DNA from: an uncultured Alistipes sp.
Lineage (GTDB): Bacteria; Bacteroidota; Bacteroidia; Bacteroidales; Rikenellaceae
Direction: 5' to 3'
Length of the DNA: 59,655 nt
Assembly (NCBI GenBank): GCA_949285535.1
Contig: CASDZP010000012.1
Coordinates: 1-59,655 of the forward strand
The notes below the pieces were generated by a model that was not told where the DNA came from, ran no database searches, and saw only the letters and a list, made by a program, of their open reading frames with translations. The position numbers and the translations under genes were made by a program. Below, piece by piece: positions 34,817-59,655 of this stretch. The stretch's first letter is position 1. Every line of letters begins with the position of its first letter.

Positions 34817-36166
34817 TTAAGAAATGTTATTTTCCGATTCCGCGCACGGCTTTGGAGAATTGAGCGCCACCACCTCTTTTATCAGTTCGTCTGTCCATTT
34901 TTTAACATACTTTTTCTTCAACACGCTTTTCTGACAAAATCGCGTCAGATAGACATACTTGAAGAAACTTCCTCGCGCGAGAGTTGCCTCTCTTAGCTTG
35001 AATGCCTTATGATGCGCCGTATATCCCGTGTAAGAGTTTATTTTGGCGATTATCCCCATAGCCTCCCGATACGAAAGTTCCTTTTCGCAAGCCTTGTCAA
35101 GTTCATCCACCGTTTTTCTGAAATTCACCTTGGTGCGTTTTGTCACCAACATAGTAAAAGGTTTCACTCTTGCACCGAGGAAATCGACACCCCGCCGATA
35201 GTGTTGCAGATATATTTTATGAGGATGCAGACGTTGACGGAACTCCGACCACAGACGCTCCTGCACCACTGGTATTATTGACGCAAGGAAACGCTTGTCT
35301 TCATGCACGACAAAGAAGTCGTCCACATACCTGCCGTAATACCTGAGCTTCATTTCACGCTTCATGAAGTGGTCGAAATCGTTGAGATAAATGTTACTGA
35401 ATAGCTGTGAAGTAAGGTTTCCGATAGGGAGGCCGCACCCTTTGGGCGAGAAGAAAAGACTTTTGGACTTTGGCAACCCCACTCTTTCGGAGGGCTTGCT
35501 TTTAAAGACGAAATTCCGCGTACAGTCGCTGTCTATGACAATTTCAATCAGATACCACAGCAGTTCGAAATCGACAATCTCGTCGAATTTGACATTACCG
35601 CCGTTCCGTTCCTCTTTCAGATGTTCATATTTGTCCGCCATACTGAAAAAGAGCTCATCGTTTTCGTTGACGTTCCGATGCCTCATTCTGTCGAGGATTT
35701 TCTTCGTTTTTACCTTTAGCACCTGTTTGTCTATGCTCATGAAATATCCTTTCAGGTCGAGTTTGAGAATATGGCACTCTTTTTTATAGTTCATCGAACA
35801 GCTTCTGACATATTTCTGCAAACGCTCTATTCCGTAGAGTGTGCCCTTCCCTTTTCGGCACGAATAGCTGTCGTCGATGAACGCTCTTTCACACATTGCT
35901 ATCATATACCCGAACACAAGATGATGAATCACCCTGTCTCTGAAATCCGCGGCGAAGACCTCCCTTTTCACGGGCTTTTTCACTACGAAACAGATACTCT
36001 TTCCGGGGAAATATTTTCTGTTAACGATTTTCTCATGCAGCTCGACAATATTCCGCTCCATGTTTATTTCAAACCTGAGCTGATTTACGGTTCCTCTTTT
36101 GTTTTTTCTGGCCTCATAATATGCACCGAACAAATCTTCCATCAGCTCTTTTTCCGTCAGTTTCAT
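34817..36166 (-). CDS. DGR-type reverse transcriptase
   Basis: A 449-aa reverse transcriptase starting at the ATG 36166 (a GTG at 36187 is an alternative). Motifs: LKLDLKGYFMSID (first catalytic Asp), GLPIGNLTSQLFSN (the GNLTSQ form is characteristic of diversity-generating retroelement RTs; retrons and group II introns usually have QGxxxSP) and YYGRYVDDF (YVDD, ~residues 280-283). A thumb/C-terminal region follows; no endonuclease or maturase domain. In DGRs the enzyme, with Avd, copies template RNA into cDNA with mistakes opposite adenines. Its start lies about 200 bp downstream, on the minus strand, of cassette A, the demonstrated template. Confidence 0.95.
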   Translation of the reverse strand: MKLTEKELMEDLFGAYYEARKNKRGTVNQLRFEINMERNIVELHEKIVNRKYFPGKSICFVVKKPVKREVFAADFRDRVIHHLVFGYMIAMCERAFIDDSYSCRKGKGTLYGIERLQKYVRSCSMNYKKECHILKLDLKGYFMSIDKQVLKVKTKKILDRMRHRNVNENDELFFSMADKYEHLKEERNGGNVKFDEIVDFELLWYLIEIVIDSDCTRNFVFKSKPSERVGLPKSKSLFFSPKGCGLPIGNLTSQLFSNIYLNDFDHFMKREMKLRYYGRYVDDFFVVHEDKRFLASIIPVVQERLWSEFRQRLHPHKIYLQHYRRGVDFLGARVKPFTMLVTKRTKVNFRKTVDELDKACEKELSYREAMGIIAKINSYTGYTAHHKAFKLREATLARGSFFKYVYLTRFCQKSVLKKKYVKKWTDELIKEVVALNSPKPCAESENNIS

Positions 36167-36369
36167 CTCTTCATCTAAAAAGGACACGACATAAAAGCGG
36201 CGCCACGGTTTTTGACAATTGTGTCGCCATTCTTTCGACTAAGACAAAAGCCCCAGTAGTCTGCTGAACTTGCAAGACACCCTCAGGAAGTTATTCCTGT
36301 CAAAGACTTACCGCCTGACCCCCGCCATTCTCCCTGTATATTATGTTTCATTCACAGGAGTGCAAATTC

Positions 36370-36560
36370 TCTTCGGACACAGCGCACGCTCAATCCGTTC
36401 GACTTATAATTATAGCTTGACGGATTGACGCCACTGCTGTTAAAGTTTATATAGTATCCCTTCTCACCGTCGTACTGTGTGGACGCCCAACAGTTTCCGT
36501 TCACGCCCTGATTGTTCAGCACACCACTGGAGTAATGGCGGTTTCCGACAGCGGGAAACT
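36370..36560 (-). repeat. Cassette A: active DGR template repeat (TR)
   Basis: Aligns without gaps to the VR of the target gene (42284-42474): 183 of 191 bases identical. All 8 differences are at adenines of the coding (minus) strand of A. In peptide terms A reads GNRHYSSG, LNNQG, VNGNCW, YYINFNSSG at the sites where the target has GYRHYSSG, LYSQG, VNGNCW, YYIHFNSSG. It lies directly upstream of the RT gene, the usual TR position. Confidence 0.95.
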
Positions 36561-36805
36561 TTTTAGCAGACGTTTACATTTGGCGGCACAAGGGTGAAAT
36601 ACCGTTGCGCCGATATATTTCCGCATTGACAAAAAACGGTGCGACAGCCTCCGTCAATTGCGTCGCCATTCTTTGAACTAAGACAAAAGCCCCAGTAGCC
36701 TGCTGAACTTGCAAGACACTCTCAGGAAGTTGTTCCCATCAAAGACTTACCGCCTGACCCCCGCCATTCTCCCTGCACATTTTTCATTCACGGGAGTGCA
36801 AATTC

Positions 36806-36996
36806 TCTTCGGACACAGCGCACGCTCAATCCGTTCGACTTATAATTATAGTTTGACGGATTGACGCTGCTGCTGTTAACGTTCAAAAAGTATCCCTTCT
36901 CTCCGTCGTACTGTGTGGACGCCCAATAGTCGCCGTGCATACCCTGTCTGCCCAGCACGCCATTGGTGTAGTTGCGGTAACCGACAGCGGGAAACT
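36806..36996 (-). repeat. Cassette B: VR-like, diversified
   Basis: Reads GYRNYTNG, LGRQG, MHGDYW, YFLNVNSS, so most template Asn positions are substituted. It differs from A at 25 sites, and at 20 of them A or B has a coding-strand adenine. Looks like the product of mutagenic homing or a relic of a diversified target. Flanking long spacers match those of A and C. Confidence 0.85.
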
Positions 36997-37244
36997 TTTT
37001 AGCAGACGTTTACATTTGGCGGCACAAGAGCTAAATACCGTTGCACCGATATATTTCCGCATTGAAAAAAAACGGTGCGACAGCCTCCGTCAATTGCGTC
37101 GCCATTCTTTAGACTAAGACAAAAGCCCCAGTAGTCTGCTGAATTTGCGAGACACTCTCAGGAAGTTGTCACCGTAAACGGCTTACCGCCTGACCCCCGC
37201 CATTCTCCACGCGCATTCCGTTTCATGCGCGGGAGTGCAAATTC

Positions 37245-37435
37245 TCTTCGGACACAGCGCACGCTCAAGCCGTACGACTTATAATTATAGTTTGACGGAT
37301 TGACACCGCTGCTATTAAAGTTCATAAAGTATCCCTTCTCTCCGTCGTACTGCGTGGAAGCCCAACAGTTTCCGTTCACGCCCTGGTTGCCCAGCCCGCC
37401 ACTGGAGTAGTTGCGGTTACCGACAGCGGGAAACT
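37245..37435 (-). repeat. Cassette C: mostly template-like
   Basis: Reads GNRNYSSG, LGNQG, VNGNCW, YFMNFNSSG. An ATG four codons before the unit gives a 96-codon open frame, the only cassette with this, created by one base change in the spacer; I do not take it as a gene. Confidence 0.8.
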
Positions 37436-37682
37436 CTTTAGCAGACATTTACATTTGGCGGCACAAGGGCGGGATACCGTTGCACCGATATATTTTCCGC
37501 ATCGACAAAAAAACGGTGCGACAGCCTCCGTCAATCGCGTTGTCATTCTTTCGACTAAGACACGAGTGTCTCAGTATCCTGCTGAATTTGCAAGACACCC
37601 TCAGGAAGTTGTCCTATCAAAGGCTTACCGCCTGACCCTCGCCATACCCCGACCTTGCATTTATCGACCGAGCCGCAAATTC

Positions 37683-37876
37683 TCTTCGGACACAGCGCAC
37701 GCTACGACCGCTCGCCTTATTATTAGCGTAGTCTGACGGGTTAACGACACTGCTATTAAAGACCATATTGTATCCGCTCGTCTCGTCGTACTGCGATGAA
37801 GACCAATACATTCCGTTCGTTCCCTGATTGTTCAGCACGCCATTGGAGTAGTTACGGTTTCCGACAGCGGGAAACT
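37683..37876 (-). repeat. Cassette D: Asn-rich, one extra codon
   Basis: Reads GNRNYSNG, LNNQG, TNGMYW, YNMVFNSSV and then a segment one codon longer than the others (194 bp). It marks the border between long and short spacers. Confidence 0.8.
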
Positions 37877-38000
37877 CTTTAGCAGAAGTTTACATCTGAC
37901 CGCGCGAGAAAACGCAAACTGCCTGCACCGATGTTTCAGACAGCTGATTCGGTTTTCGCAAACGAAAGAATATTCAGCCAAAAGTCGGGGGCGCAAATTC

Positions 38001-38191
38001 TCTTCGGACACAGCGCACGCTAAAGCCGTTTGCCTTATAGTTGTTGTTCGACGGGTTAACGTTGCTGCTATTAAAGTTCATGTTGTAACCCTTCTCCTCC
38101 TCGGACTGTGTCGATGACCAACAGTTTCCGTACACGCCCTGATTGTATAGCACGCCATTGGAGTTGCCGCGGTTACCGACAGCGGGAAACT
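38001..38191 (-). repeat. Cassette E: VR-like
   Basis: Reads GNRGNSNG, LYNQG, VYGNCW, YNMNFNSSN; Tyr replaces Asn at two usual template positions. Confidence 0.8.
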
Positions 38192-38314
38192 TTTTAGCAG
38201 GAGCTTACAATAGTCAAACCGAGGGCGGAGAGTCTGTTCGCACCGATTGTTTTCACGCAAATAACCTTCCATACAGACAAAACGCGACACGATTCAAAAG
38301 TCGGGCGCAAATTC

Positions 38315-38505
38315 TCTTCGGACACAGCGCACGCTCAATCCGTTTGACTTATTAGCGTTGTTTGACGGGTTAATGCCGCTGCTATTGAAGTTCATATAGT
38401 ATCCCTTTGCCTCCTCGTACTGGGTGGACGACCAATAGTTTCCGTTCACACCCTGGTTGTTCAGCACGCCACTGGAGCTGTTACGGTTACCGACAGCGGG
38501 AAACT
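38315..38505 (-). repeat. Cassette F: Asn-rich, template-like
   Basis: Reads GNRNSSSG, LNNQG, VNGNYW, YYMNFNSSG, with NPSNNANKSN towards the end. Asn (AAC/AAT) is kept at essentially every variable site, as expected for an unused template. Confidence 0.8.
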
Positions 38506-38633
38506 CTTTAGCAGAAGTTTACAGTTAGACCCGTGAGAGAGAAGAGCCGTTCGCACCGACATTCTTTATACGCAGATAACTTTCACACGCTTCATTTTCA
38601 AAATCGCGACTCAAAGCAAAGTCGGGCGCAAAT

Positions 38634-38822
38634 TTCGGACACAGCGCACGCTCAAGCCGTTCGACTTGTTGGCGTTGCTTGACGGGTTAACGCCGCCACT
38701 GTAAAGATTCATATAGTATGCCTTTGTCTCCTCGTACCGGGTGGATGCCCAACAGTTTCCGTTCACGCCCTGATTGTTCAGCGCGCCACTGGAGTTGTTA
38801 CGGCCTCCGACAGCGGGAAACT
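38634..38822 (-). repeat. Cassette G: Asn-rich, 4-nt deletion at its end
   Basis: Reads GGRNNSSG, LNNQG, VNGNCW, YYMNLYSGG. The conserved CCGAAGAGAATTTGC at the unit end is shortened to CCGAAATTTGC. Confidence 0.8.
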
Positions 38823-38952
38823 CTTTAGCAGAAGTTTACAGTTAGACCAGCGCGAGAGAGAAGAGCCGTTCGCACCGACATTCTTTATACGCAGATAACT
38901 TTCACACGCTTCATTTTCAAAATCGCGACTCAAAGCAAAGTCGGGCGCAAAT

Positions 38953-39143
38953 TCTTCGGACACAGCGCACGCTCAAGCCGAACGACTTGTCGGCGTCGTT
39001 TGACGAGTTAACGCCACCGCTACTAAAGCTCATAAAGTATCCCATTGTCTCCTCGTACTGGGTGGACGACCAATAGTATCCGGTCAAGCCCTGATTATAC
39101 AGTGCGCCACTGGAGGTGTGGCGTCCTCCGACAGCGGGAAACT
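38953..39143 (-). repeat. Cassette H: strongly diversified, 2-nt deletion at its end
   Basis: Reads GGRHTSSG, LYNQG, LTGYYW, YFMSFSSGG. The end sequence is CCGAAGAATTTGC, two bases shorter than in most copies. Confidence 0.8.
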
Positions 39144-39275
39144 CTTTAGCAGAAGTTTACATTTAGACTCGGCAAGAGAGAAGAGCCGTTCGCACCGACA
39201 TTCTTTATACGCAGATAACTTTCACACGCTTCATTTTCAAAATCGCGACTCAAAGCAAAGTCGGGGTGCAAATTC

Positions 39276-39466
39276 TCTTCGGACACAGCGCACGCTCAAG
39301 CCGTACGTCTTACCGCCATACTTGGACGGACTAACGCCGTCGGCATTGAAGTTCATATTGTATCCCAACTCCTCATCATACTGGGTTGACGACCAATACC
39401 CCGCAGCCATACCCTGACTATACAGCGCGCCATTGGAGTGGTGGCGTCCGCCGACAGCGGGAAACA
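39276..39466 (-). repeat. Cassette I: strongly diversified
   Basis: Reads GGRHHSNG, LYSQG, MAAGYW, YNMNFNADG. Its YS pair equals that of the live VR. The upstream boundary differs (AGCAAGCAGG in plus orientation instead of TCTTTAGCAG). Confidence 0.8.
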
Positions 39467-39598
39467 GCAAGCAGGATTTTACAGTTGAGTCAGCGAGGGC
39501 GGAGAGCCGTTCGCACCGACATTCTTTAACACGCAGATAACTTTCACACGTTTCATTTTTCAAAATCGCGACTCAAAGCAAAATCGGGGCGCAAATTC

Positions 39599-39789
39599 TC
39601 TTCGGACACAGCGCACGCTAAAGCCGTTTGACTTATAGTTGTTGTTTGACGGGTTAACGCTGCTGCTATTAAAGCTCATGTTGTATCCGTTCTCCCCGTC
39701 GTACTGCGTAGAAGACCAATAGTTCCCGTTCGTACCCTGATTGTTCAGCACACCTGTGGAGCGGTTGCGGTTTCCGACAGCGGGAAACT
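39599..39789 (-). repeat. Cassette J: Asn-rich, nearest to avd
   Basis: Reads GNRNRSTG, LNNQG, TNGNYW, YNMSFNSSS. It is the avd-proximal end of the bank; beyond it (39790-39980) the sequence is unique. Confidence 0.8.
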
Positions 39790-39990
39790 ATAAAGCAGGA
39801 GTTTACAATAGTCATCACGAGAGCGTAAAGCCGTCACACCGACACATCATTTGCGCCTGCAAACCATGCCGTCACCGCGTTTTCACGGGGTCATCCCTGC
39901 ATAAAACGCGTTGTTTCAGGTTATCATGGTTATAAAGCGTTGATATTTCAAAGAACGTTTTTATGTCAATGTCAGAAAATCCATAAAAAA

Positions 39991-40072
39991 GCGGACGGAT
40001 TCAGATTTGCTTTCAAGGTCTCCACGCCCTGTTGTTAAACAAAAATAAAAGCATCGGTCTTTATCCGTCCGC
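39991..40072 (-). terminator. Long-range stem between avd and the cassette bank
   Basis: 10-bp arms GCGGACGGAT (39991-40000) and ATCCGTCCGC (40063-40072) enclose ~62 nt; on the minus strand the structure is followed by TTTTTTATGG. It may end the msl-avd transcript before the cassettes, or be a structured part of a longer template RNA. Confidence 0.5.
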
Positions 40073-40095: not shown

Positions 40096-40461
40096 TTAAT
40101 CGGCTCTGGCACCGATATTTTTCGACTGTTCATACCATGTCGCCAACTGTTTGGAGACCTCTTCGGCAGTCACGGACAAGGCGACGAAAGTTTTTCGGTT
40201 TATCGCCCTTAGCTCGAACATCAGCCTCATTCCTACCACCACTTTGACAAACTCCTCACGCGCCATCATTATGTATTGCGATTTGAGCCGTCTGTCTCTG
40301 TTGGCTTTGAATAGCGACGCCATGACCTCGATTATGTCGTGCGCTATTTTTTCGCCATAGACCATTCTGTATATCCTGTTCATCTGCGGCAATGTTTTGG
40401 AGAAAGCGACGAGCAGTTCGTTGCATTTCTGATATACGGGCAGTTCGTTAAATAGAGCCAT
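40096..40461 (-). CDS. avd: Avd, DGR accessory variability determinant
   Basis: A 121-aa, almost wholly helical, basic protein of the four-helix-bundle type (relatives include the '23S rRNA-intervening sequence' proteins and Bordetella Avd, 128 aa). Helices start near ELPVYQKCNELLVAFSKTL, HDIIEVMASLFKANR, MMAREEFVKVVVGMRLMFEL and FVALSVTAEEVSKQLATWY. Avd forms a basic ring that binds the RT and template RNA and is required for mutagenic homing (established in Bordetella phage). Overlaps the msl stop by 14 bp. Confidence 0.9.
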   Translation of the reverse strand: MALFNELPVYQKCNELLVAFSKTLPQMNRIYRMVYGEKIAHDIIEVMASLFKANRDRRLKSQYIMMAREEFVKVVVGMRLMFELRAINRKTFVALSVTAEEVSKQLATWYEQSKNIGARAD

Positions 40462-40927
40462 TTGAGAGCAGGTGTTTCAGTTCTTTGACAAAAATCAGGC
40501 ACTCAATCGGGTTTGCCGATTCGAGCATAAAGTTTCTTATTCTGTGTATAGCCTCTTTTTCGGGGTCACTTTGCTCGTTGTTTTTCTCTTCAGTCGTTTT
40601 TATCTCTTTTGCCTCGACGAGATTTTTCCATGTATCGAAATCCCTCAAATCGACACGCCCGCCCATATCGACGACAATCGTCCGTTCGTCGGGTATAGTG
40701 ACGGAGTAGTCACGAATCAGTTCGGATATTTTGGAGTTCGGGAATCCAATATAGACCACGTAACCGTCCACGCATTTGACAAATTTTTTCTGGACGAGAT
40801 ATTTTTTGATGTTGTTATAAAACACATAAGCCGACCTTTCGTAGGCTTTCCAAAATCCGCCTTCTTTGTAAAGATAAATTTTGTCTTCATTATGTTTTTC
40901 CGTTTCTACTTTTTCCTGTATTGTCAT
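40448..40927 (-). CDS. msl: Msl: MutS-like DGR accessory protein
   Basis: A 159-aa protein. Its N-terminal ~100 residues (IYLYKEGGFWKAYERSAYVF…) resemble the mismatch-recognition domain I of MutS, with a Phe in the G-x-F-W context comparable to the mismatch-probing Phe-x-Glu loop. The C-terminal ~50 residues are charged then helical (EKEAIHRIRNFMLESANPIE). MutS-like accessory genes have been reported in surveys of Bacteroidota DGRs; their role is not established. The overlap with avd implies coupled expression. Confidence 0.75.
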   Translation of the reverse strand: MTIQEKVETEKHNEDKIYLYKEGGFWKAYERSAYVFYNNIKKYLVQKKFVKCVDGYVVYIGFPNSKISELIRDYSVTIPDERTIVVDMGGRVDLRDFDTWKNLVEAKEIKTTEEKNNEQSDPEKEAIHRIRNFMLESANPIECLIFVKELKHLLSNGSI

Positions 40928-42182: not shown

Positions 42183-42250
42183 GCGCCGCCGCTTCGCAGG
42201 CGGCGCTTTGCTCTCGCATGCAGTCCGATGTCCGCTTCGCATGACATCGG
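42183..42250 (-). promoter_or_regulatory. Paired hairpins just beyond the variable region
   Basis: Two 8-bp stems on the minus strand: CCGATGTC/GACATCGG (42225-42250) and GCGCCGCC/GGCGGCGC (42183-42206). Both loops contain GCGAAGC, known in DNA as an unusually stable mini-hairpin. The first begins 33 bp past the VR end. In the Bordetella phage DGR a hairpin/cruciform just downstream of the VR promotes target recognition, so these are candidates for that role; termination is the alternative, since the second stem is followed by an A/T-rich tract. Confidence 0.6.
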
Positions 42251-42280: not shown

Positions 42281-45200
42281 TTATCTTCGGACACAGCGCA
42301 CGCTCAATCCGTTCGACTTATAATTATAGCTTGACGGACAGACGCCACTGCTGTTAAAGTGTATATAGTAGCCCTTCTCACCGTCGTACTGTGTGGACGC
42401 CCAACAGTTTCCGTTCACGCCCTGACTGTACAGCACACCACTGGAGTAATGGCGGTAACCGACAGCGGGAAACTCCAACTTAAGCTTACCGCTTGTGAAT
42501 ATCTTGTAACCGTAGTCGCTTGCATTCCATCCTCCACCATTTGTCTGTGTCGTAGCGTTCTTTAAGGCTACAAACTCATCCATGGTCGGTAAGCGGTAAT
42601 CTTCGGGACACGGGTCGTTGGCTTCAAGCCATGATGTGTTTTTGGTCGGAGGGTTGGTTCCGTTCCAACCGCTGACGCTGCTGCCCGTGCTTTCCCAAGA
42701 CTTTTTGCCGACATCCCACTGATAGAACCTGCCGTGAGATTTCGTTTTTATCGGGTCGTCCGTACATTCGGACGGCAACTTCGTGGCAAACGATGTGCCT
42801 TCCCAACGGCTCTTACCCAAATTGTAACGCATCCAGCTGACACCTCCGATAGTGACGAGAGAATAAGGATTGAAGTCACAATTTTGTGTTACGGTAACCT
42901 GAATAGTCGTTCCCTTATATGTCAACGTAAGAACAACCGTTCTCGATTTTCCGTAATCATTCTCTGCCGTCGTCTTGACCGTCAGTTTGTTACCCGAAAC
43001 ACTTGCCAACATCCATGCGTTGCTCTGCGGCGAAACCGTCAGACCGCCCGATATCGAACCGTCGTTTGTCGTAGCTACCGTTATAGTGCTTGTCTGGTTG
43101 GGTTGACCATTAAACGTAATAGACGAGGGAGTTATTGTGAGCTTGACAGGTGTCTGACTGACTGTCGCTGTCGCTCGGTTTACTCCGTCTCGACCTTTAA
43201 GTGTTATAATAGCGTTCGATTCCTCTTCATTGAACGTCAAGGTCGATTTGAACGCGACCTTAAATGTACCCGCTGTTGAAAGCGAGCTGACAGCATGGTC
43301 GGTCGTATTCGTACTTGTCACATAACCGCTTTCGAGAATATCCCATACAGAGGCTGTAAACGTACCGTTGACCGATGCCAGACCGCCAATGACGGAATAA
43401 CTGCTTTGGTTACCGACAAGGATGCTTGTCTTCTTGGCTTGTCTGACGGTAAACGAACCTGCGACATTGCCGTCAACCTTTATGTCAAATTCAGAGTCAA
43501 CCTCGCTTGTCGTCGTGTTGGCGGGTACAGCCAACGTGAATGTGTAGGTGTCGCCGTTGCCCGCAAGGGGTGATTTAACGGTGACTTTGCTGCCCGATGT
43601 CTTGGACTCCAGCTCAATTCGGTCGAGGCTCGCAGTTGCCGAGAGTTTGACGCTGAAGGTATAATCGTACGCCACGCTGAACGCCTTGAGGACATTGGCC
43701 TCAAAGATTGCCTGACCGCCAGAACCGTAAGTGACGCCCTGAACCGTGGCGGTAAAGTTGGCGAGCTGCGTAACCGTGAACGACTGTGAAAAAGTGTTCT
43801 GGCTCTCGAGAACAACCTGACCCGTACGCTCTTTGCCCGTGTTGGCTGACGCTATCACACTCAACGACGAACCGCTCGGATTGGTTTCGGGTCCGCCTGC
43901 CACGGGCGATGTGCCAAGCCAGCTCTGTGTAACTTTGGACACTTTCCATGAGGTCGAACCGCTACCGGCGGAGGTATTGATTGTCATCGACACGGAACCT
44001 CCGTCCTTGACTATATTTTTGAGTTTAAGCGAATCCTCTTTTGAGACACTGAATGTCACTGGACTCTGTTTCGTTGTGAACTCAACCTTGTTACCGCCGT
44101 TAAGATTCATCGCAATAGTCGCGCTCTGCGCCGCGTCGTTATATTTCATCGTCTCGGCATAGCCGATAATGACTTTTTTGTTTTCAGCATCTTGAGTGAC
44201 CTTTATATTGGGATTGCTCGAAAAGAAGTCTCGAAAATCCCACTCCGAAACGACGTATGTAACATTTTTAAGCTCCTGACGGTCTTTAACACCGCCCCAT
44301 ATCTCGGCGGAGGTATCTGTCAGTTTCGGCTGAACAGGGGTCTTGACGGTAAACGAACCGACAACGACTCCGTCAACTTCTACGTCAATGATATAATCGA
44401 CCTCCTTGTCCTTGTCGCTCGCGGGAACGGTAAGCGTGAAATTATACGTCTTATCATCCTTACCCTTGGTTACGTCGCTTGCGGTGATACCGCTGTCAGC
44501 CGCGGTACCTTTGTTGCAGTTGACGACAATGGACGCCCCGTCGGGTATGGCAGTCTGGGTGATAAAGGTAAACGAATATGTCTTTTTGAGGCTGTAAGCC
44601 TTTAACGTGTTGTCTGAAGAACTCCAGCATTCCGACGCCGAGATACTGCCGACGCTGTAAGAGGGTGACTGCGAAACCTCAAACGCTCTCGAAATGGTGT
44701 TCATGGATTTCACTCGTATATAGGCGGTACGACCCGTAGAGCCGGGATTGGTTTCAAGATGCAGTTTCAGCTTGGTACCACTACCCCCGGTCATCGAAGG
44801 AGACGTTTTCTTAATCCATGTGGCGGGCGAACCGTCAACTTCGGTAATGTCGCCCCACATCACCCAAACCTGGTCGGTCTCGGTTGTGACCGTCGCATCG
44901 ACATCACATTCGAGATACCCCACATTGGAAAGTCTCTCGGGTGTAAAGGTTATCTTGGCGGGACGTTGCTTGAAGGTCACTTTGGCATGCACCTCGCCGT
45001 TCGGGTCGGTAAACTCGACGGGTACTTCAAGACCGTCTGTCGGCATCTGTGACGCGTCAACCGTCTCTATGAACGTGGCGGTGATTGTCTTTGCCTGTCT
45101 GTCTATGTCTATCATAATACCGTCGGTATTGTTCTCTGATTCTCCCGTCGGTATTATCACAATGTCATTCATCTCATCTTCATCGGCATCATACTTGACC

Positions 45201-46456
45201 GCTCGTGTCTTCGTAATGCTACCTACACCACCGATGACATTCACGCAACCGTCCTCAAGCGTCGTTCCGCTGACGGCTGTTATCGTGATACCCCTGCTCT
45301 GGACTATATTGAAGAAACCGACATTGGTCTGCCCCACTTTAACGACAATCTTGGTTGTGCGCTCGGCTCCCGTCGTGTTTTTGGATACCACTATCACGTT
45401 ATCCCTTATCTCAAGCCAATCGGCGGACTCTATGTTGACAAGTTCGCCGACACCCCCGTTGGCTGTTATCACAAACGAAAACTCGGTGCCGCCGCTATAC
45501 GCGCGCAAATCACCGTTGTCATTGAACATACCGCCGACAACCTGAATCTTTACATCGCCGTTGAGGTTATAACTGCCCACATTGCCCCAGTTGTCGGGCG
45601 AGCCTACTTTCAGATTTCCGCTTTCAAGATAGCCGACCATTGCGGTAGCCTGCTTACCGACATCGAGACGTTCCACAAACGACATCGACGCAACTGTCTT
45701 GGCGGTATTGCCGCTCCCTGCGGAAGCATCCTTCACAACTGCCTCCACCTCCATTTCGACACCCGACACTCTGCTCTGCGGAACATAAAAGCTATACACA
45801 ACCAGGTTACCCTCATCATCCTTTACAGCCTCCGCCGTCATGTCGTAGGTAATTCCCGAAACCTCTTCGCCCGACTTGAAAAGATACCCCCTCGAAGGCA
45901 AACCGCTGACGGTCGATTTAGCCAAATCTATTCTTGTCGCCGAAGTGTTGGTCATCTTGATTGAGCTGTTAACCCTGTTCAACATCATCGGAACACGTGT
46001 ATCGGGAGAAGTTCCCGACAAATCGACAGTCACTTTACCTGAGAACGGGAATCGCTTGTATGTAGTCTGATGCGGAATCGAGAGTGACTCCAGTTTGCCC
46101 ACCGTCAAACCCTCCGCCTCAGGCAAATCTATAAGGTCCGTACAGTTCACCACGGCATAAACGGTATATGTCTCCCTGTACGGCAGGCTTATTTTACTAC
46201 TGCCCCCGACATAGTCCGTCATCTCACGTAAAACACAAACTCCCTTGGAATCAAACGCATAGAAGACTACATCGTCAATTTGGTCGTCAGACGGAACAGA
46301 CGACCTCGTGACAACGCCATTGTCCGTTTGGTCGGAAATATCATAAAATTCGTCAAACTCAAAATCAAACGCCAAATCCTGCGTCGAAACCAAGCTGTCG
46401 TTCCGCTGCGCACAACTGACGCAAAAAGCTAATAATAAAGCAATTACCCTTCTCAT
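42281..46456 (-). CDS. DGR target: large lipoprotein with C-terminal FISUMP/C-type-lectin-like variable domain
   Basis: A 1391-aa surface lipoprotein: hydrophobic signal with Cys15 as probable lipidation site (AFCVSC); a fimbrillin-like region (about residues 40-290); then several ~90-residue beta-sandwich repeats ending in motifs such as FEVSQSP, FTVTQLA and VTVTQNC, resembling BACON/Ig-like modules; and a C-terminal ~200-residue domain (IGGVSWMRYNLGKSRW…, DPCPEDYRLPTMDEF…, SVRCVRR) of the 'Fibrobacter succinogenes major paralogous' type with a C-type-lectin-like fold. The last 63 codons are the DGR variable region. Diversified residues are 1334, 1343, 1344, 1366 and 1373. Likely a surface ligand-binding protein. 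Confidence 0.93.
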   Translation of the reverse strand: MRRVIALLLAFCVSCAQRNDSLVSTQDLAFDFEFDEFYDISDQTDNGVVTRSSVPSDDQIDDVVFYAFDSKGVCVLREMTDYVGGSSKISLPYRETYTVYAVVNCTDLIDLPEAEGLTVGKLESLSIPHQTTYKRFPFSGKVTVDLSGTSPDTRVPMMLNRVNSSIKMTNTSATRIDLAKSTVSGLPSRGYLFKSGEEVSGITYDMTAEAVKDDEGNLVVYSFYVPQSRVSGVEMEVEAVVKDASAGSGNTAKTVASMSFVERLDVGKQATAMVGYLESGNLKVGSPDNWGNVGSYNLNGDVKIQVVGGMFNDNGDLRAYSGGTEFSFVITANGGVGELVNIESADWLEIRDNVIVVSKNTTGAERTTKIVVKVGQTNVGFFNIVQSRGITITAVSGTTLEDGCVNVIGGVGSITKTRAVKYDADEDEMNDIVIIPTGESENNTDGIMIDIDRQAKTITATFIETVDASQMPTDGLEVPVEFTDPNGEVHAKVTFKQRPAKITFTPERLSNVGYLECDVDATVTTETDQVWVMWGDITEVDGSPATWIKKTSPSMTGGSGTKLKLHLETNPGSTGRTAYIRVKSMNTISRAFEVSQSPSYSVGSISASECWSSSDNTLKAYSLKKTYSFTFITQTAIPDGASIVVNCNKGTAADSGITASDVTKGKDDKTYNFTLTVPASDKDKEVDYIIDVEVDGVVVGSFTVKTPVQPKLTDTSAEIWGGVKDRQELKNVTYVVSEWDFRDFFSSNPNIKVTQDAENKKVIIGYAETMKYNDAAQSATIAMNLNGGNKVEFTTKQSPVTFSVSKEDSLKLKNIVKDGGSVSMTINTSAGSGSTSWKVSKVTQSWLGTSPVAGGPETNPSGSSLSVIASANTGKERTGQVVLESQNTFSQSFTVTQLANFTATVQGVTYGSGGQAIFEANVLKAFSVAYDYTFSVKLSATASLDRIELESKTSGSKVTVKSPLAGNGDTYTFTLAVPANTTTSEVDSEFDIKVDGNVAGSFTVRQAKKTSILVGNQSSYSVIGGLASVNGTFTASVWDILESGYVTSTNTTDHAVSSLSTAGTFKVAFKSTLTFNEEESNAIITLKGRDGVNRATATVSQTPVKLTITPSSITFNGQPNQTSTITVATTNDGSISGGLTVSPQSNAWMLASVSGNKLTVKTTAENDYGKSRTVVLTLTYKGTTIQVTVTQNCDFNPYSLVTIGGVSWMRYNLGKSRWEGTSFATKLPSECTDDPIKTKSHGRFYQWDVGKKSWESTGSSVSGWNGTNPPTKNTSWLEANDPCPEDYRLPTMDEFVALKNATTQTNGGGWNASDYGYKIFTSGKLKLEFPAVGYRHYSSGVLYSQGVNGNCWASTQYDGEKGYYIHFNSSGVCPSSYNYKSNGLSVRCVRR
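42284..42474 (-). repeat. Variable region (VR) of the DGR target
   Basis: 191 bp matching cassette A. Differences at 42339, 42340, 42361, 42371, 42426, 42430, 42457 and 42458. On the coding strand each is A in the template. Results: Asn to Tyr (1334, 1343), Asn to Ser (1344), Asn to His (1366), Asn to Cys (1373), and two silent changes (Gly1333, Gly1362). Homology stops exactly at the target stop codon and at AGTTTCCC upstream. Confidence 0.95.
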
Positions 46457-58853: not shown

Positions 58854-59655
58854 CTATTCATTTCTTACACATCGTACACTAAGAGCATGTGTCTTAATGA
58901 TGTTGTGGTATGATGGATTAACGCTTTCATCGTTAAAAATTAAATAATAGGCATAGTCAGAGTCATATTCTGTTGACGACCAATAACGTCCGTATGTTCC
59001 ATTAGTTGTCAATAAATTGTTTTTTAGATCTCTGAAACCGACACATGGAAATTCCAACTTAACACTTCCACTTTCAAATATTTTGTATCCGTAATCACTC
59101 GCATTCCATCCTCCCGCATTTGTTTGTGTTGAATTGTTTTTTAACTCCACAAACTCATCTTGTGTCGGAACACGATATCCATCCGGACATGGGTCATTAG
59201 CTGTTATCCAAGAGCTATTTGGTGACGAAACATTTGAGTCAATTTCTACGCTGCCGGTACTTGGCCATGATTTATTACCGATATCCCATCGGTAAAATCT
59301 ACCATGTGATTTTGTTTTTATCGGGTCATCTGTACATTCAGACGGAAGTTTTGTTGCAAAAGTAGCTAATGTTCCCTCCAATCTACTTTTACCCAAATTA
59401 TATTTCATCCATCTAACACCTCCGATATTAACGATTTGATATGGATCAAAATCACAATTTTGTTTAATTGAAATTTGAATTGTTGTCCCTTTATAAGTTA
59501 CTGTAACATTATCTGATCTTGACTTTCCAGTGTCATTTTCTGCAACTGTTTTTATTGTTACTTTATTTCCTGATACACTAACGATAAACCAATCTTTACT
59601 TTGTGGAGAAACAGTCATACCACTTGATATTGTTCCGTCATTTGTAGTGCCGACT
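58854..59655 (-). CDS. Second FISUMP-type surface protein, 5' end beyond the window
   Basis: 267 codons are visible, open to the window end. The sequence follows the DGR target closely in order: a last BACON-like repeat (TVSPQSKDW…, VTYKGTTIQISIKQNCDF), then IGGVRWMKYNLGKSRLEGT, SHGRFYRWDIGNKSW, DPCPDGYRVPTQDEF and C-terminal SVRCVRNE. DNA identity to the cassettes is low and its codons are more AT-rich, so the cassette bank is not its current template. It may be an independently evolving paralogue or the target of another template. Confidence 0.88.
   Translation of the reverse strand, partial: VGTTNDGTISSGMTVSPQSKDWFIVSVSGNKVTIKTVAENDTGKSRSDNVTVTYKGTTIQISIKQNCDFDPYQIVNIGGVRWMKYNLGKSRLEGTLATFATKLPSECTDDPIKTKSHGRFYRWDIGNKSWPSTGSVEIDSNVSSPNSSWITANDPCPDGYRVPTQDEFVELKNNSTQTNAGGWNASDYGYKIFESGSVKLEFPCVGFRDLKNNLLTTNGTYGRYWSSTEYDSDYAYYLIFNDESVNPSYHNIIKTHALSVRCVRNE

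What the first reader, a model, noticed from the sequence alone, without database searches (positions are those of the whole stretch)
36188..39789. A ten-copy bank of TR/VR-like cassettes in place of a single template repeat
DGRs normally carry one TR, rarely two, between avd and the RT gene. Here ten ~191-bp copies stand in tandem, each with conserved edges and conserved spacers, and only the RT-proximal one is shown to match the VR. The bank could be a set of alternative templates, an archive of former VRs used by gene conversion, or templates for unlinked targets. I know of no described DGR with such a bank.
Basis: partly seen in the sequence, partly recalled or inferred. Interest (0 to 1): 0.95.

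Follow-up and report, generated by a model that had tools for sequence, protein, structure and literature searches.

The report
Ten-template bank for one retroelement
A bacterial gene-diversifying retroelement carries ten different template copies in a row instead of one: one matches the neighbouring target gene and another matches a gene on a different contig, differing there almost only at adenines, so the bank likely supplies templates for more than one predicted surface-protein gene.

Summary
Ten different 187-190-nt cassettes lie between avd and the RT gene of a diversity-generating retroelement (DGR); all ten have template-type flanks and none has a stop. Cassette A differs from the local VR at 8 of 52 adenines and 0 of 137 other bases. 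One RT and one Avd were found in the genome. Four VRs share the cassettes' exact 3' edge and a downstream block with an inverted repeat. So the bank is a set of templates, at least one fitting an unlinked gene. Cassettes H and I look like adenine-mutagenised cores in template-type flanks. Related Bacteroidales have banks of 8, 11 and 14 plus dozens of solo cassettes; in both species with a readable target, a solo cassette on another contig, not the bank, is the clean template. No clean target was found for C-J, and nothing here shows activity. My searches of open papers found no such bank. New variant of the DGR.

The parts
34817..36187 (-). Reverse transcriptase gene of the DGR (456 aa; contains PIGNLTSQ)
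   Evidence: RVT_1 E 2.4e-13; PHROG reverse transcriptase E 1.3e-87; only match of this protein in the genome at E <= 0.01
36207..36371 (-). Conserved template-associated element after cassette A
   Evidence: Aligned with the copies after B, C, D and in two related genomes; GAATTTGC...GCAARTTC pairing
36372..36558 (-). Cassette A, template of the local VR
   Evidence: A 8/52, non-A 0/137 against VR 42286-42472
36643..36807 (-). Conserved element between B and A
36808..36994 (-). Cassette B, template-like match of the VR on contig C10
   Evidence: A 7/50, non-A 2/139 against C10:25277-25465
37079..37246 (-). Conserved element between C and B
37247..37433 (-). Cassette C
   Evidence: weak A-biased relation to C33:43384 (A 16/47, non-A 23/142, p 0.0096)
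37518..37684 (-). Conserved element between D and C
37685..37874 (-). Cassette D (190 nt, one in-frame 3-nt insertion)
38003..38189 (-). Cassette E (short unit, no element)
38317..38503 (-). Cassette F (short unit); nearest to VR C30:2736
   Evidence: A 18/55, non-A 25/134, p 0.03
38634..38820 (-). Cassette G (short unit)
38955..39141 (-). Cassette H, adenine-poor, VR-like core
   Evidence: 3 Asn codons (I has 4, the other eight 8-14); recipient in directional pairs
39278..39464 (-). Cassette I, adenine-poor, VR-like core
   Evidence: 4 Asn codons; recipient in directional pairs
39601..39787 (-). Cassette J (avd-proximal); nearest to VR C45:8780
   Evidence: A 27/53, non-A 26/133, p 3.1e-5
39985..40072 (-). 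10-bp inverted repeat (loop about 60 nt) then a T run between avd and cassette J, terminator-like
   Evidence: read from the spacer printed; the terminator scan, limited to loops of 3-8, does not list it
40096..40461 (-). Avd gene (121 aa)
   Evidence: PHROG Avd E 2.3e-13; NCBIfam Avd E 6.4e-8, below its cut-off
40448..40927 (-). Accessory ORF of unknown function before avd
   Evidence: no family hit in Pfam, NCBIfam or PHROGs; a similar ORF stands at the same place in G035, L093:10978-11502 (by eye)
42225..42250 (-). Inverted repeat CCGATGTC-ATGCGAAGCG-GACATCGG after the VR
42281..46456 (-). Local target gene (1391 aa; BACON repeats, C-terminal FISUMP domain; predicted lipoprotein from its N-terminus, by eye)
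42286..42472 (-). VR of the local target

Best explanation
This is a diversity-generating retroelement with ten template cassettes for one reverse transcriptase, of which one matches the VR of the neighbouring gene and one the VR of a gene on another contig almost only apart from adenines, and it likely works by copying more than one template, with random bases at adenines, into whichever target carries the matching edges. Shown: ten template-type cassettes with shared edges, one detected RT and Avd, adenine-restricted differences for pairs A-local VR and B-C10 VR, and a common 3' block with an inverted repeat behind four VRs. Inferred: that cassettes are transcribed, that the RT-Avd complex uses them in trans, and that edge homology plus the inverted repeat choose the target. 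Inferred with weaker support: that cores also flow into cassettes (mutagenised or plain copies), which would explain H, I and the fast-diverging cores between nearly identical spacers, so that the bank is a changing stock and not ten fixed templates.
For: A vs local VR: A 8/52, non-A 0/137, Fisher p 2.2e-5; B vs C10 VR: A 7/50, non-A 2/139, p 0.0015. Both relations end at the same cassette edges. One match each for RT and Avd in the genome. Of the 39 VR-like C-termini found, 4 (C12, C10, C45:8780, C30:2736) carry the exact 17-nt 3' edge; C12, C10 and C45 have an 8-9-bp inverted repeat within ~110 nt and C30 a 5-bp one. Template-type flanks on 10 of 10 cassettes, TGTAA..CTGCT before and ATTTGC after, and no copy of the VR-type 3' block anywhere in the bank. 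No stop in 10 of 10 cores, whereas random placement of the same substitutions put stops in a mean of 6.5 of 10 and left none in 1 of 5000 runs. Non-A consensus bases change least at codon positions 1 and 2 (10.5%, 5.1%) against 16.8% at position 3; consensus adenines change 17-20% at every position. Other species: the A. muris target VR is best explained by a solo cassette on another contig, A 17/37, non-A 5/149, p 4.6e-10 (21 candidates: 8 bank, 13 solo); the isolate C35 target VR by a solo cassette, A 6/33, non-A 0/150, next best non-A 35/147 (63 candidates). Banks of 8, 11 and 14 in three relatives.
Against: Only 2 of 10 cassettes have a clean VR. For the other two edge-sharing targets the nearest cassette (J, F) leaves 26/133 and 25/134 non-A differences, so their real template is not in this bank as assembled. 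E-J lack the conserved element that accompanies A-D. The B pair has two non-A differences. In both relatives with a readable target the bank did not supply the clean template, so a bank cassette may be the rarer source there. No RNA, cDNA or strain comparison was available. The genome is 88% complete in 59 contigs, so partner VRs, other templates or a second RT may be missing.
Confidence: 0.75

Rival explanations
1. Archive model: cassettes other than A (and B) are former VR cores stored in template-type flanks by recombination or retrohoming, read back by gene conversion and not by reverse transcription.
For: H and I are adenine-poor (41 and 39 A against 47-55; 3 and 4 Asn codons against 8-14, the two VRs counted have 5), and the 14 strongest of 90 directional pairs all have H or I as recipient. 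G, H, I spacers differ by 1-4% while their cores differ by 18-27%. In C35 bank cassette 60600 is an adenine-mutagenised copy of cassette 61021 (A 15/32, non-A 5/151, p 1.4e-9; picked from all ordered pairs of 63). In A. senegalensis two solo cassettes 470 kb apart have identical 186-nt cores between flanks that align over only 57 nt (51 identical) on one side and 15 on the other.
Against: The adenine bias towards H and I is 2-3 fold, with 12-25% non-A differences left. The other eight cassettes are adenine- and Asn-rich as templates are. The clean VR relations run template to VR with adenine-only change.
Confidence: 0.35
2. Relic model: the bank is a tandem duplication of one TR; only A (perhaps B) works and C-J drift.
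For: Only A and B have clean VRs. E-J lack the conserved element. Tandem units of ~436 and ~323 nt suggest duplication.
Against: All ten cores open and in frame, one indel of exactly 3 nt; random placement rarely gives this (1 of 5000). Some cores diverge far more than their spacers. Banks recur in relatives.
Confidence: 0.2
3. The cassettes are 3' remnants of lost target genes (VR copies), not templates.
For: Cores encode the same C-terminus as the targets.
Against: 10 of 10 cassettes have template-type flanks on both sides, and the T-rich block that follows the VRs is absent from the bank at up to 2 mismatches (VR side).
Confidence: 0.04
4. Assembly artefact in a metagenome-assembled genome.
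For: 59 contigs, 88% complete; repeats are hard to assemble. The congener's contig breaks inside its array.
Against: Ten distinct cores; comparable banks in a named strain and in a 1.88-Mb scaffold.
Confidence: 0.03

Closest known systems
Bordetella phage BPP-1 DGR (avd-TR-sp-brt; hairpin after VR)
   Same: avd, TR and RT order; adenine-only TR-VR differences; inverted repeat after the VR (passages of PMC3240598); structured spacer by the TR (passages of PMC12875486)
   Different: One TR there; ten TR-type cassettes here, one of them matching an unlinked gene; position of the conserved element differs among relatives
Treponema denticola DGR with remote targets
   Same: Target genes remote from the RT locus (passages of PMC4891356)
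   Different: Isolates are given one TR type each in the passages seen; 'multiple TRs' there means different TRs in one person's metagenome
Stenotrophomonas sp. SKA14 DGR with two TRs and six VRs
   Same: More than one TR with several target genes (passage of PMC6642488)
   Different: Two TRs, not a bank of ten; no dispersed solo templates mentioned in the passages seen
Silent-cassette antigenic variation (pilS/pilE, vls; recalled, no call)
   Same: A bank of partial gene copies with shared edges and variable cores that feeds an expressed gene
   Different: There by recombination; here the clean pairs differ only or almost only at template adenines, with an RT and Avd alongside

Membership tests
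Diversity-generating retroelement | RT of DGR type (IGxxxSQ motif in place of QGxxxSP; motif recalled) | tested here: met
   PIGNLTSQ in all 7 aligned RTs; PHROG reverse transcriptase E 1.3e-87. NCBIfam lists only sub-threshold hits to other RT classes; no RT tree was built
Diversity-generating retroelement | Accessory protein Avd | tested here: met
   PHROG Avd E 2.3e-13; NCBIfam and Pfam Avd models hit below their cut-offs
Diversity-generating retroelement | TR-VR pair with differences at template adenines | tested here: met
   A 8/52, non-A 0/137
Diversity-generating retroelement | VR at the C-terminus of a C-type-lectin-like target domain | tested here: met
   VR ends the FISUMP domain of the local target and of the C10 target (E 1.5e-10); that this is a C-lectin fold is recalled, not tested
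Diversity-generating retroelement | Inverted repeat after the VR, absent after the TR | tested here: met
   C12, C10, C45 with 8-9 bp, C30 with 5 bp; the accompanying block is not in the bank. The loop is not the 4-nt GRNA of phage DGRs
Diversity-generating retroelement | Structured spacer RNA next to the TR | tested here: inconclusive
   Element after A-D and next to TRs of G002 and G035; 9 of 29 predicted pairs with two-sided change but covariation term +0.44; it lies 5' of the RT-proximal TR in the relatives
Diversity-generating retroelement | Mutagenic retrohoming activity | not testable with these tools
   needs cells or reads
Silent-cassette gene conversion system | Expressed tract copied from silent cassettes with mixed-base differences or mosaics | tested here: not met
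   Painting VRs C12, C10, C30:2736 and C33 with the nine cassettes of equal length gave one cassette each, no mosaic; C45 was not painted, D was left out; clean pairs are adenine-only or nearly so

The most novel reading that the evidence does not exclude
A writable template library: one RT-Avd copies from a bank plus dozens of solo cassettes spread over the genome into a few surface genes, and mutagenised cores are written back into template-type cassettes, so that selected variants can become templates for the next round, a heritable memory built on a DGR.
Probability: 0.3. Interest if true: 0.93.

Novelty: new variant of a known kind. Interest (0 to 1): 0.82.

Why it matters
DGRs are understood as one fixed template feeding one or more variable regions. 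A bank of distinct templates, one fitting an unlinked gene, plus solo templates elsewhere in relatives, would mean that the scaffold of the hypervariable domain can change and not only its adenine codons, and that template and target can evolve as two gene families. It makes directly testable whether templates are fixed or rewritten, which decides if a DGR can keep what it has found. It also warns that DGR detectors which look for one TR beside the RT can miss the working template: in A. muris and C35 the clean match lies on another contig.

Tried and rejected
Searched Rfam around the locus: two sub-threshold hits, neither at the bank. Tested whether all 39 VR-like C-termini found in the genome are fed by the bank: 4 of 39 have p<0.01 for adenine bias against their best cassette, and most of the rest differ at about 35-50% of both adenines and other bases, so they are old paralogues or belong to templates not seen. 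Tested mosaic origin by painting 5 loci: one cassette for 4 of them; the distant C30:20996 split into three, which I take as noise. Looked for a meaning of the two unit types: E-J lack the element present after A-D; I cannot say whether this makes them inactive (clean VR for 2 of 4 with it, 0 of 6 without). The first repeat screen returned nothing, probably because of an unsupported BLAST scoring pair, and was rerun. The A. senegalensis target VR could not be tested: part of it reads N. Papers: searches (one found none, 82 returned off-topic papers); passages read in PMC8144416, PMC4891356, PMC3521204, PMC6642488, PMC10907252, PMC12875486, PMC3240598; no whole paper read; bioRxiv and most subscription papers are not in the library, so 'not described' means not found there.
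Full report
WHAT IS THERE. The window is contig C12, complete, of a 2.05-Mb genome in 59 contigs, 88.3% complete. On the minus strand stand, in order, a 1391-aa target gene, an accessory ORF, avd, ten cassettes J to A, and the RT gene. The nearest relative found with the same RT (70% identity, same neighbouring genes by eye) is titled Rikenellaceae bacterium. One RT and one Avd match were found in the genome.

THE CASSETTES. Each begins TTTCCCGCTGTCGG and ends AGCGTGCGCTGTGTCCGAA; nine cores are 187 nt and D is 190 nt with one in-frame codon more; all ten are distinct. 10 of 10 have template-type flanks, TGTAA..CTGCT before and ATTTGC after, and the T-rich block that follows the VRs does not occur in the bank at up to two mismatches (VR side).

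TEMPLATE RELATIONS. Cassette A against the local VR: 8 of 52 adenines and 0 of 137 other bases differ. Cassette B against the VR of a protein of up to 1766 aa on contig C10, a predicted lipoprotein by its N-terminus (by eye) with a C-terminal FISUMP domain: 7 of 50 and 2 of 139, the two being near the 3' end. This second pair is the main addition to the finding: one bank, one RT, two unlinked genes. I compared all 39 VR-like C-termini found in the genome with all ten cassettes: 4 of 39 show adenine bias at p<0.01 against their best cassette (A, J, B, C). C45 with J and C30:2736 with F, two genes that share the exact edge, keep 26/133 and 25/134 non-adenine differences, so their template is not in this bank as assembled.

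TARGET MARKS. The exact 17-nt 3' edge occurs, besides the ten cassettes, at four VRs: C12, C10, C30:2736 and C45:8780; two more places have it with 2 mismatches. Behind the four lies a common block with an inverted repeat of 8 bp at C12, 9 bp at C45 and 5 bp at C30; for C10 the longest repeat (8 bp) is a second, more distal one, and a 7-bp counterpart of the C12 repeat is visible; between C12 and C45 one stem pair changes on both sides. I saw no such block behind the other VR-like genes, except that C33 keeps its beginning; many of those have other inverted repeats, some terminator-like. In phage BPP-1 an inverted repeat behind the VR is needed for homing (passages of PMC3240598).

HOW THE CASSETTES EVOLVE. 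No core holds a stop. Placing each cassette's own substitutions at random on the consensus gave stops in a mean of 6.5 of 10 cassettes, and none in 1 of 5000 runs. Non-adenine consensus bases change at 10.5, 5.1 and 16.8% for codon positions 1-3, adenines at 17-20%. 62% of pairwise core mismatches involve A, against 48-49% in spacers. The 3' spacers of G, H and I differ by 1-4%, their cores by 18-27%; this is not so for all pairs: for A against C, and F against G or H, spacers and cores differ about equally. H and I are adenine- and Asn-poor like VRs, and the 14 strongest of 90 directional pairs all point to H or I, though with 12-25% non-adenine differences. I read this as cores being replaced inside cassettes.

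THE ELEMENT. A ~165-nt element lies after A, B, C and D, not after E-J. A related element stands next to TRs in G002 and G035 and, by eye, in G022. A helix can join the GAATTTGC that follows a cassette to GCAARTTC ~95 nt on; it changes once on both sides in G035; the overall covariation term is weak (+0.44). In BPP-1 a structured spacer between TR and RT recruits RT-Avd (passages of PMC12875486). In the relatives the element precedes the RT-proximal TR, so its role here is open.

RELATIVES. Of 61 genomes searched with the RT, the own one included, 9 had a match. Of 160 loci from public genomes and viruses my screen found one adenine-type TR in 111, none in 48 and two in 1; it counts only TRs with a VR in the same locus and found only A in the window itself. 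Reading 13 loci for the VRCV motif gave banks upstream of the RT of 14 in Bacteroidales isolate C35, 11 in an Alistipes senegalensis MAG, 8 in Alistipes muris, at least 4 in another Alistipes, and 2-4 in some others; one Alistipes locus showed a single copy, and R. microfusus and two Rikenella loci none by that motif. The congener G002 has at least two, its contig starting inside the array; G035 has two.

SOLO CASSETTES. In A. muris 13 and in A. senegalensis 36 copies lie outside the bank. Of these 49, 48 carry the bank's 5' motif within 60 nt, 43 have an in-frame stop within 50 codons upstream, and 9 are spanned by some ORF of at least 150 aa. The A. muris target VR is matched best by solo C5:81330, next to a V-ATPase gene: 17 of 37 adenines and 5 of 149 others, p 4.6e-10; the best of 8 bank cassettes leaves 17 of 145 others. 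In C35 I extracted 67 of the 89 copies matched: 66 have the cassette-type 3' flank, 63 of them also the 5' motif, and one, the target, has neither. I compared the target with those 63; 9 of the 63 lie in frames over 300 aa, which I classed by their flanks and did not study. Solo C7:97137 differs from the target at 6 of 33 adenines and 0 of 150 others, the next best at 35 of 147. Thus in 2 of 2 species with a readable target the clean template is a solo cassette on another contig. In A. senegalensis two solos 470 kb apart share a 186-nt core without one mismatch while their flanks align over only 57 nt (51 identical) before and 15 nt after it. In C35 one bank cassette is an adenine-mutagenised copy of another, 15 of 32 and 5 of 151, picked from all ordered pairs of 63.

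HOW IT LIKELY WORKS. Cassettes are transcribed (inferred), RT-Avd copies one of them with random bases at adenines (established for DGRs), and the cDNA replaces the VR of a gene with the same edges and 3' block (inferred from the pairs). Several templates would allow the domain's scaffold to change as well as its adenine codons. Transfer of cores into cassettes, mutagenised or not, is likely but its route is unknown.

NOVELTY. In the papers searched and passages read the most I saw was two TRs with six VRs in Stenotrophomonas SKA14, and a survey in which 216 of 271 multi-VR DGRs had one TR (PMC6642488; it also lists a Pseudomonas record with 6 TRs that it calls atypical, with few adenine changes). 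I rate it a new variant of the DGR. The weak point is the lack of any proof of activity and of any clean target for C-J.

Noticed in passing
G002 (congener), e.g. L373-L391: 147 VR-like matches in one genome, its TR included. Of 59 copies extracted, 58 compared with the RT-proximal TR: median 44% of adenines and 7.8% of other bases changed; C114:2869 differs at 19/49 adenines and 0/131 others. Many are solo VRs in frames of 64-80 aa with a VR-type 3' end.
   Followed up: partly
L374, L375, L376, L377: Single genes of 902-1044 aa frame with four or five VR-bearing domains in tandem.
   Followed up: no
L091:1-9500 (G022): About 9.5 kb of ~205-nt cassette-like units upstream of an RT, mostly without the VRCV motif; possibly a decayed or much larger bank.
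   Followed up: partly
G000, ~34 loci such as L032-L065: A large family of genes with this VR-like C-terminus but without the cognate 3' block, many near contig ends, in the same genome.
   Followed up: partly
window 58854-59654: FISUMP paralogue cut by the contig end, 52% identical to the cassette-like query; followed by a 12-bp inverted repeat, not by the cognate block.
   Followed up: partly
window 40448-40927: Accessory ORF without a hit in three family libraries, with a similar ORF at the same place in G035.
   Followed up: no
L126, L173, L158: Short banks (3, about 4 and 2 cassettes) in a Dysgonamonadaceae MAG, a Mediterranea MAG and Bacteroides reticulotermitis.
   Followed up: no
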